Part shown: one piece after another, positions 3,716-25,122 of the stretch
Layout: the number at the start of each line of letters is the position of its first letter
Numbering within the stretch: position 1 is the stretch's first letter
Origin: an uncultured Candidatus Melainabacteria bacterium
Lineage (GTDB): Bacteria > Cyanobacteriota > Vampirovibrionia > Gastranaerophilales > Gastranaerophilaceae
Direction: 5' to 3'
DNA: 50,889 nucleotides
Assembly: GCA_949398305.1 (NCBI GenBank)
Contig: CASLVD010000005.1
Location: 1-50,889 of the forward strand
Notes under the pieces: model-generated
The model's database searches: none
What the model was told of the DNA's origin: nothing
What the model saw: the letters and a program-made list of their open reading frames with translations, nothing else
Position numbers and translations under genes: made by a program

Positions 3716-3735
3716 AAAAAGGTAGCCGAACACTT

Positions 3736-3822
3736 GCTCCAGTGGCGGAATCGGTAGACGCGTTGGACTTAAAATCCAATTGGGCGTATAACCCAGTGCC
3801 AGTTCAAGTCTGGCCTGGAGCA
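3736..3822 (+). tRNA. tRNA-Leu (anticodon TAA)
   Basis: An 87-nt class II tRNA: 7-bp acceptor stem GCTCCAG/CTGGAGC, D arm with GGTAGACG, anticodon stem TTGGA/TCCAA around loop CTTAAAA (anticodon TAA, reads UUA/UUG), a long variable arm (GGGCGTATAACCC) and a T arm with TTCAAGT. Discriminator A73; the CCA end is not encoded and must be added. It has its own strong promoter and terminator. Confidence 0.97.
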
Positions 3823-3831
3823 TATTTAAAA

Positions 3832-3860
3832 AGACCCACGCAAGTGGGTCTTTTTTTTTT
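3832..3860 (+). terminator. terminator of tRNA-Leu
   Basis: An 8-bp stem AGACCCAC/GTGGGTCT with a GCAA tetraloop is followed by about nine T. A near-identical copy recurs at 3977-4003. Confidence 0.9.
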
Positions 3861-3950
3861 ACGGCCATCCTTTCCTTCCAGTTCAGCTGGTCGCTTCGCG
3901 CCTGCGCATACAAGCTCACAAGGCTCATAAATTCGCCTGTTCGTTTTGTA
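3861..3950 (+). other. G+C-richer spacer between the two tRNA-Leu 3'-end copies
   Basis: Ninety bases with composition unlike the AT-rich surroundings (for example GTCGCTTCGCGCCTGCGC). No open frame or tRNA body is recognisable. It contains AAGGCTCAT (3920-3928), also present at the same relative place beside tRNA-Arg. It is read as the interior of an insertion remnant. Confidence 0.45.
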
Positions 3951-4003
3951 AAGTCTGGCCTGGAGCATATTTAAAAAGACCCACGTAAGTGGGTCTTTTT
4001 TTT
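3951..4003 (+). repeat. partial duplicate of the tRNA-Leu 3' end and its terminator
   Basis: Fifty-three bases identical to 3806-3858 except one C-to-T change in the hairpin loop. The copy begins in the T loop (AAGTCTGGCCTGGAGCA), runs through the acceptor strand and trailer, and includes a full second terminator (3977-4003). The rest of the tRNA is absent, so this is a 3'-end duplication, the pattern left by insertion at a tRNA gene. Confidence 0.9.
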
Positions 4004-24838: not shown

Positions 24839-24854
24839 TTATTTATGCTTGGAG
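24839..24854 (-). repeat. diverged partial duplicate of the tRNA-Arg 3' end
   Basis: Minus-strand CTCCAAGCATAAATAA matches the tRNA-Arg acceptor end and trailer CTCCAGGCGTAAATAA (25026-25041) at 14 of 16 positions, both differences being G-to-A. The copy lies 187 bp from the original and is followed by another terminator. Confidence 0.6.
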
Positions 24855-24996
24855 TGGTTGTCTTGTTCGCTTGCGTTAATGAGCCTTCGGATTTTCTTTT
24901 CATAACCTCTGCTCATTCCAAAGAAAACTCCTCCGCCCTTAGCTCGCTCCCGCTCAAACCTAAACAAAGCTTCCGCTTTGTGGGTTCTCATTCCAT
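24855..24996 (-). other. G+C-richer spacer between the two tRNA-Arg 3'-end copies
   Basis: About 140 bases lacking any credible open frame. On the minus strand it has a perfect hairpin ACAAAGC-GGAA-GCTTTGT, the string GAGCGGGAGCGAGC, the direct repeat GGAATGAG twice, and AAGGCTCAT shortly before the duplicated tRNA end. It is interpreted with the matching locus at 3861-4003 as an insertion remnant; a structured RNA is an alternative. Confidence 0.45.
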
Positions 24997-25023
24997 AAAA
25001 AAAGACGGCTTGTAACCGTCTCT
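24997..25023 (-). terminator. terminator of tRNA-Arg
   Basis: Minus strand AGACGG, loop TTACAAG, CCGTCT followed by about seven T. Confidence 0.88.
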
Positions 25024-25030
25024 TTTTATT

Positions 25031-25104
<74 letters not shown>

Positions 25105-25122
25105 ATATCTGTTTACCTGTTC

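What the first reader, a model, noticed from the sequence alone, without database searches (positions are those of the whole stretch)
3920..3950. Shared AAGGCTCAT motif at a fixed distance from both duplicated tRNA ends
Both spacers contain AAGGCTCAT(T)AA, at 3920 on the plus strand and in 24855-24890 on the minus strand, and in each case it lies 22-24 nt before the duplicated tRNA piece. Same motif, same orientation to the tRNA and same distance suggests a defined element end, i.e. a family of non-coding micro-elements targeting tRNA 3' ends. This may be an undescribed element type; it could also serve as a buffer that restores the tRNA end and terminator after insertion.
Basis: partly seen in the sequence, partly recalled or inferred. 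Interest (0 to 1): 0.7.

Follow-up and report, generated by a model that had tools for sequence, protein, structure and literature searches.

The report
Structured non-coding units rebuilding tRNA ends
Gut bacteria of the order Gastranaerophilales carry up to about 26 copies per genome of a roughly 180-base non-coding DNA unit that sits inside the ends of many different tRNA genes, restores the gene it interrupts and folds into a conserved shape; no described element or RNA family that I could test matches it.

Summary
The inference drawn from it is largely right. Behind tRNA and tmRNA genes of Candidatus Gastranaerophilales lies a family of non-coding units of about 120-305 nt (mostly 160-215). 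Each runs from the T-loop cut (nt 58/59) through a copy of tRNA nt 59-73, usually a terminator, and a structured body X, to the next copy of nt 59-73. X shows strong covariation (120 double-changed cells against 37 shuffled) and folds best on the tRNA-sense strand. Part of it is antisense to the host tRNA's T-arm. A covariance model finds X in 49 of 59 relatives and in none of 84 genomes of other orders in the phylum; 38 of 41 best hits inspected lie directly behind a tRNA or tmRNA. Units form arrays, differ between orthologous loci and share bodies between tRNAs; one tRNA-specific unit sits in another tRNA's array. I read them as cassette-like integrative micro-elements whose folded strand recombines with the T-arm, much like integron attC x attI. 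The enzyme is unidentified, so the mechanism is inference; the family is not.

The parts
3735..3823 (+). tRNA-Leu(TAA), the host gene; unit boundary in its T-loop between 3807 and 3808
   Evidence: ARAGORN and Rfam; duplication mapped
3808..3952 (+). Type-B unit, 145 nt: tRNA nt 59-73 (3808-3822), terminator (about 3830-3860), body (about 3861-3952)
   Evidence: Boundaries from the exact repeat; no ORF; type B shared in kind with units at Gln(ctg), Leu(gag), Val(tac)
3951..4003 (+). Second copy of tRNA-Leu 3' end plus terminator (AAGTCTGGCCTGGAGCATATTTAAAAAGACCCACG...)
   Evidence: Direct repeat of 3806-3859
3920..3928 (+). AAGGCTCAT of the finding; inside the type-B body, not conserved in the family
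25030..25105 (-). tRNA-Arg(ACG), the host gene; unit boundary between 25046 and 25045
24859..25045 (-). Type-A unit: tRNA nt 59-73 (25045-25031), terminator (about 25023-24998), structured body X (24996-24859) ending CAAGACA
   Evidence: Covariance model R1 hit at G000:C5:24851-24996 (-), E 1.6e-22; 85% to family consensus
24844..24858 (-). Degenerate second copy of tRNA-Arg nt 59-73 (11 of 15)
24879..24887 (-). AAGGCTCAT of the finding; decayed form of the type-A P4/CCGTT region
   Evidence: alignment; family count

Best explanation
These are non-autonomous, non-coding integrative micro-elements that insert at one fixed point, between nt 58 and 59 in the T-loop of tRNA and tmRNA genes. A unit is [tRNA nt 59-73 | usually a terminator | X]. 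Because the unit carries nt 59-73, the tRNA gene is whole again after insertion and the old 3' end is pushed downstream. X folds on the tRNA-sense strand into a three-way junction. Helices P1 and P2 rebuild a T-arm-like duplex: the 5' strand is antisense to the T-arm, and the 3' strand of P1 is supplied by the next copy of nt 59-65. The arm P3-P4-P5 leaves exactly at the cut point. I think X acts as a single-stranded folded recombination site and the tRNA T-arm as the double-stranded target, the logic of integron attC x attI. A recombinase acting in trans cuts at 58/59 and inserts units at the tRNA, where they accumulate as arrays whose distal members decay. Shown: the family, the boundary, the fold, the tRNA association, the arrays, differences between orthologous loci, shared bodies between tRNAs and one case of a tRNA-specific unit in another tRNA's array. 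Inferred: that X is DNA rather than RNA when it acts, recombination as the route, and any enzyme.
For: Location: 76 of 91 distinct core matches in GTDB contigs lie 12-430 nt behind a same-strand tRNA or tmRNA, 7 more are at locus edges; 38 of 41 covariance-model best hits likewise. Boundary: copies of nt 59-73 bracket 134 distinct units, mostly 160-215 nt. Structure: 91.7% of cells paired, 120 cells with changes on both sides against 36.6 shuffled (0 of 500 as high), slid controls 27-47% paired; P3 variants GACCTGT/ACAGGTC, GAGTTGC/GCAACTC, GGATTTG/CAAATCC, GCGAGTG/AACGAGC; sense strand more stable in 75 of 78 units, z about -4. Local T-arm: variable stem positions match the local tRNA 551 times against 377 (sd 11.6, maximum 415) after label permutation. 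Presence/absence: tRNA-Gly(gcc) without a unit in G000, with one in G018 and G008; tRNA-Ala(ggc) without in G008, with in G000; native terminator displaced in the Gly case. Movement: X identical at tRNA-Ser(gga) (L188) and tRNA-Ser(gct) (L203) of one MAG, with a Ser(gga)-type unit as second member of the Ser(gct) array; nearly identical bodies at His and Ser, and at Arg and Tyr, within one genome. Most units have a terminator between tRNA and X, which speaks against co-transcription with the tRNA.
Against: No enzyme is tied to the units. The 181-187 aa solo tyrosine recombinases occur in 24 of 36 genus genomes, but genomes without one also have intact units, and several lie next to restriction-modification genes. 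Body exchange between tRNAs and the Ser case could come from homologous recombination between repeated bodies. GNRA-like loops and tandem G-A pairs are at least as typical of RNA as of folded DNA. attC uses the bottom strand, X folds on the sense strand. No circular or excised unit has been seen. Deletion between the direct repeats could also produce the 'empty' loci.
Confidence: 0.42

Rival explanations
1. X is a structured RNA and the units are SINE-like retroelements: X RNA ending in tRNA nt 59-73 is copied into the tRNA gene by target-primed reverse transcription, with staggered nicks at the T-loop and at the tRNA 3' end giving the ~15-17 nt duplication.
For: Sense-strand folding and GNRA-like loops; duplication bounded at the T-loop on one side and near the discriminator base on the other; units carry no ORF.
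Against: A terminator usually lies between tRNA and X and I saw no conserved promoter before X; encoded CCA is often missing from the duplicates, so they were not copied from mature tRNA; a Ser(gga)-type unit with its own tRNA end and terminator lies in a Ser(gct) array, so tRNA ends travel with units.
Confidence: 0.2
2. X encodes the guide of an RNA-guided system (IS110 bridge RNA, or TnpB/omega-RNA with TTCGA as the motif next to the target), so that antisense and sense T-arm pieces of X pick the tRNA target.
For: X holds an antisense T-arm (GTGGGAT-GA-GAACCCAC) and a sense half (GGGTTCGA) matched to the local tRNA above chance; the sequence right after X is the tRNA target.
Against: IS110 transposase absent from G000 and from 29 of 35 genomes; guide order is not that of the described bridge RNA (from my knowledge); TnpB was not searched.
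Confidence: 0.1
3. The units are scars: attachment-site remnants of larger tRNA-integrating islands or phages that lost their genes.
For: tRNA-end duplication is the hallmark of tDNA islands (PMC4383910, abstract); tRNA downstream flanks turn over strongly between relatives; cargo-bearing DNA abuts X in L126, L175, L184, L200, L202.
Against: A covarying 140-nt structure shared across about 20 tRNA species is not expected of random remnants; no long unit with exact duplication in the held loci, though most of these reach only 1.5-8 kb; no match in phage contigs beyond chance.
Confidence: 0.13
4. A sedentary structured RNA or regulatory element of tRNA operons, duplicated locally by slippage and homologous recombination.
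For: Tandem near-identical units (L030, L134, L195, L222) fit local amplification.
Against: Presence/absence differences at orthologous tRNAs, shared bodies between tRNAs, and 0-26 copies per genome.
Confidence: 0.1

Closest known systems
tDNA genomic islands and prophages integrated by tyrosine integrases (Islander set, PMC4383910)
   Same: Insertion splits a tRNA or tmRNA gene, the insert restores the 3' part, the displaced fragment marks the far end; the T-loop is a known crossover place (from my knowledge).
   Different: About 120-305 nt, no integrase, no genes, many tRNA species per genome, tandem arrays, conserved folded body with antisense T-arm.
Integron gene cassettes and attC sites (PMC8946536)
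   Same: Cassette ends in a folded site whose outer stem is completed by the start of the next cassette; insertion at one fixed site, array with oldest members distal (my mapping).
   Different: No cargo gene, no IntI found in G000, target is the tRNA T-arm, outer stem sequence differs per tRNA, sense strand folds best.
REP/BIME elements moved by RAYT (Y1) transposases
   Same: Short, structured, non-coding, multi-copy.
   Different: Strict tRNA location and 59-73 duplication; RAYT-type genes in a minority of genomes, not next to X, no co-occurrence.
IS110 elements with bridge RNA
   Same: Internal segments matching both sides of the target.
   Different: No transposase in G000 or most relatives; tRNA-end duplication; guide order differs.
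Tycheposons
   Same: tRNA-linked elements in Cyanobacteriota with partial tRNA copies (from my knowledge).
   Different: Tycheposons are kilobase-sized and gene-bearing; these units are not.

Membership tests
tDNA island (tyrosine integrase type) | Intact tRNA upstream and displaced identical 3' fragment downstream | tested here: met
   134 units
tDNA island (tyrosine integrase type) | Element encodes an integrase | tested here: not met
   Units hold no gene; no longer unit found in held loci
Integron cassette | Integron integrase IntI in the genome | tested here: inconclusive
   PF00589 hits in G000 are two full-length recombinases of 298 and 305 aa, two solo catalytic domains and one fragment; the solo proteins score far below the IntI cut-off; no IntI model was run over relatives
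Integron cassette | Folded recombination site completed by the next cassette's start | tested here: met
   P1 covaries with the start of the next copy
Integron cassette | Bottom-strand recombination | tested here: inconclusive
   Fold is stronger on the sense strand; no recombination assay
IS110 / bridge RNA element | DEDD transposase PF01548 available in the genome | tested here: not met
   0 in G000; 6 of 35 genomes
REP/RAYT element | RAYT gene flanked by the repeat | tested here: not met
   RAYT-like genes have no X motif at their flanks and do not track X
Known structured RNA (Rfam 15) | Match at or above a family threshold | tested here: not met
   Only tRNA found in window; nothing credible on four loci at E up to 5
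Phage-borne element | Present in viral contigs | tested here: inconclusive
   Two exact patterns in IMG/VR: four matches, all chance matches in GC-rich phages
Casposon / Cas1-type insertion | Cas1 homologue and terminal inverted repeats | not tested
   No search slot left
Retroelement | Reverse transcriptase tracking copy number | not tested
   No search slot left

The most novel reading that the evidence does not exclude
A new class of mobile element: gene-free cassettes that use the tRNA T-arm as an attI-like dock and a folded single strand as their attC-like site, rebuilding the tRNA each time and building tRNA-anchored arrays throughout one bacterial order.
Probability: 0.4. Interest if true: 0.93.

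Novelty: categorically new. Interest (0 to 1): 0.82.

Why it matters
tRNA genes are among the commonest integration sites in bacteria. Here is a lineage in which many of them (about 16 of 37 in the window genome, counting decayed copies) carry gene-free units that rebuild the tRNA end. If the folded-strand reading holds, it is a second natural case of single-strand site recombination beside integrons, with a near-universal dock (the T-loop GTTCGA). If X is an RNA instead, it is a new structured RNA family tied to tRNA genes. Either way the covariance model makes the question testable at once: copy number per genome ranges from 0 to about 26, so gene association can point to the enzyme.

Tried and rejected
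Motif as element end: rejected, absent from the units outside the window. Local slippage alone: rejected, shared bodies between tRNAs and presence/absence differences. Phage origin: IMG/VR matches are chance. IS110: absent in most. RAYT/Y1: no co-occurrence. Solo tyrosine recombinase as the enzyme: present in 24 of 36 genus genomes but only loosely tied to units, several copies near restriction-modification genes; left open. Retroviral-type copying of mature tRNA up to position 58: unlikely, because the duplicates often lack CCA. Long cargo-bearing units with exact duplication: none in held loci, most of which reach only 1.5-8 kb. Literature: seven searches found no description of such units (only open-licence papers held).

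Full report
Observation. The window (G000:C5 of a 1.92 Mb, 109-contig genome) has two tRNA genes, tRNA-Leu(TAA) at 3735-3823 and tRNA-Arg(ACG) at 25105-25030 on the minus strand. AAGGCTCAT occurs at 3920 and 24879 as stated. Behind each tRNA there is a spacer and then a second copy of the tRNA's own 3' end. So the description is right at the letter level.

The motif is not the point. The Arg spacer recurs in the same genome behind tRNA-Tyr (C33) and tRNA-Ala (C93). In the family alignment the place of AAGGCTCATTAACGC reads (T/A)AGACCCGTTAAACGC, so the Arg copy is decayed. The Leu spacer belongs to another type. In 134 distinct units the 9-mer is found only in the window Leu unit; that set leaves out the window Arg unit, whose copy of the tRNA end is degenerate.

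The family. A consensus search found copies in 27 of 59 relatives, and nearly every fetched locus had a tRNA or the tmRNA just upstream. Measured from the tRNA end, the duplicated piece begins about 17 nt before it, in the T-loop (TTCGA|ATCC), whatever the tRNA. GTDB contigs name the host: mostly Candidatus Gastranaerophilales or Melainabacteria. Of 91 distinct core matches there, 76 lie 12-430 nt behind a same-strand tRNA or tmRNA, 7 are at locus edges, and the other 8 were read one by one: most end in a tRNA-like copy or have a masked or broken tRNA upstream. About 20 tRNA species are used. In the window genome roughly 16 of 37 tRNA genes carry a unit or a relic by my reading.

Control for the duplication. 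In 95 unselected tRNA genes of three genomes, 12.6% have a copy of their own nt 59-73 at 13/15 or better downstream; with tails swapped between genes it is 0.05%.

Anatomy. A unit runs from the cut at 58/59 through nt 59-73, usually a terminator or a T-rich stretch, and body X, to the next copy. Nearly all are 160-215 nt; the extremes are about 120 and 305 nt, and none holds a gene. X reads: P1 5' strand (GTGGGAT for a tRNA with stem GTGGG), GA, P2 (GAACCC - capped hairpin such as CAAAGCGAAAGCTTTG - GGGTTC), GA, P3, P4, variable hairpin P5, P4, P3, CAAGACA, then the next copy ATCCCAC, which is the other strand of P1. On 36 aligned units 91.7% of cells pair; 120 cells are changed on both sides against 36.6 in shuffles; slid versions pair at 27-47%. 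P3 alone has six or more different paired versions, and many units carry a tandem G-A pair in it. The sense strand folds better than its complement in 75 of 78 units, mean z about -4. The sequences are related, so shuffles overstate significance; the slid controls and the many stem versions are the safer evidence.

T-arm link. The P1/P2 5' strand is the reverse complement of the T-arm with the central two bases changed. At variable stem positions it matches the unit's own tRNA 551 times; permuted labels give 377 (sd 11.6, maximum 415).

Distribution. Model R1 hits 49 of 59 relatives in 12 of 17 genera, up to 26 copies, including genomes in a handful of contigs (G041, G046), which argues against an assembly artefact. 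In a wider draw across the phylum it hits 57 of 62 genomes of the window's own family and none of the 84 genomes of other orders. 27 of 30 and 11 of 11 inspected best hits are behind a tRNA or tmRNA.

Mobility. Comparing orthologous tRNA loci of G000, G026 and G008, upstream flanks are usually alignable and downstream flanks often are not. tRNA-Gly(gcc) has no unit in G000 but one in G018 and a decayed one in G008, with the native terminator displaced downstream; tRNA-Ala(ggc) has none in G008 and one in G000; tRNA-Lys(ctt) has none in G008 and relics in G000 and G026. Loss by deletion between repeats would look the same, so direction is not proven. Tandem arrays are common and distal members are often truncated or decayed. 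Bodies of 95% or more identity occur at different tRNAs in 11 pairs, some in one genome: His and Ser(cga) in L169, Arg and Tyr in G029. In one MAG (CAMEWS01), tRNA-Ser(gct) is followed by its own unit and then by a unit beginning with the Ser(gga) 3' end and terminator, the same unit that follows tRNA-Ser(gga) itself. Units therefore move between loci as modules, by site-specific or by homologous recombination.

Mechanism. The boundary at 58/59, the restored tRNA, the arrays, and a folded site completed by the start of the next unit all match integron logic with the T-arm as dock; the integron facts used are in PMC8946536. Differences are listed under Closest known systems. The solo tyrosine recombinases (181-187 aa) are the only candidate seen and I do not claim them. 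I have not excluded an RNA-based route, and the strand preference and GNRA-like loops leave it open.

Type B and C. Type B (window Leu; Gln(ctg) L058, L314; Leu(gag) L057) and type C (Asp L059; Gly L216) share the boundary; type C has the same scaffold with P3 GGATTTG/CAAATCC. Type B also holds a T-arm antisense piece, but I did not model it. In L153 types A and B alternate in one array.

Limits. Most data are metagenome-assembled genomes. E-values of R1 are rough. The 36 aligned units were chosen for an intact GAGAA and AAGA end, so the model leans to type A. Counts of tRNA genes with relics in G000 are by eye. The literature search covers only open-licence full text, so the novelty claim is provisional.

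Noticed in passing
L126 4940-8000, L175 ~1320, L184 ~365, L200 ~5560, L202 ~3085: DNA ending in ...TTTACA, with repeats such as AATCAAACCATGTG near the end, abuts or interrupts X; in L126 it carries what look like DarT/DarG and HsdR-type genes (by eye, not searched). Looks like a Tn7/Mu-like element carrying defence genes that lands behind tRNAs.
   Followed up: partly
L385 320-1100 (G000:C27, behind tRNA-Phe): Three spaced repeats like GACAGATGGTGTGATTATTTTGGGCA followed by a 153-aa MuA-like fragment (by eye): a probable relic of the same kind of transposon next to a tRNA.
   Followed up: partly
L079 1426-1989, L078 1456-2001, L098, L105: Solo tyrosine recombinases of about 185 aa, several copies per genome in the genus, some next to type I restriction or methyltransferase genes; possibly phase-variation enzymes.
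   Followed up: partly
L326-L335, L339-L342: RAYT-like Y1 transposases (about 175-200 aa) in a minority of the genomes, with no X at their flanks.
   Followed up: partly
L185 around 7138: A tRNA-Val gene that appears broken in the T-loop by a unit-like sequence that does not restore the tRNA.
   Followed up: no
L153 1050-1800: Type A and type B units alternate (A-B-A-B) behind one tRNA-Ser(gct).
   Followed up: no
L144 behind tRNA-His: A 239-nt type-B-like unit with several hairpins, the longest B unit seen.
   Followed up: no
L005 870-1120 (G000:C93): An 84-aa ORF lies between the unit and the gene that directly follows the empty tRNA-Ala in G008; possibly cargo of an older insertion.
   Followed up: no
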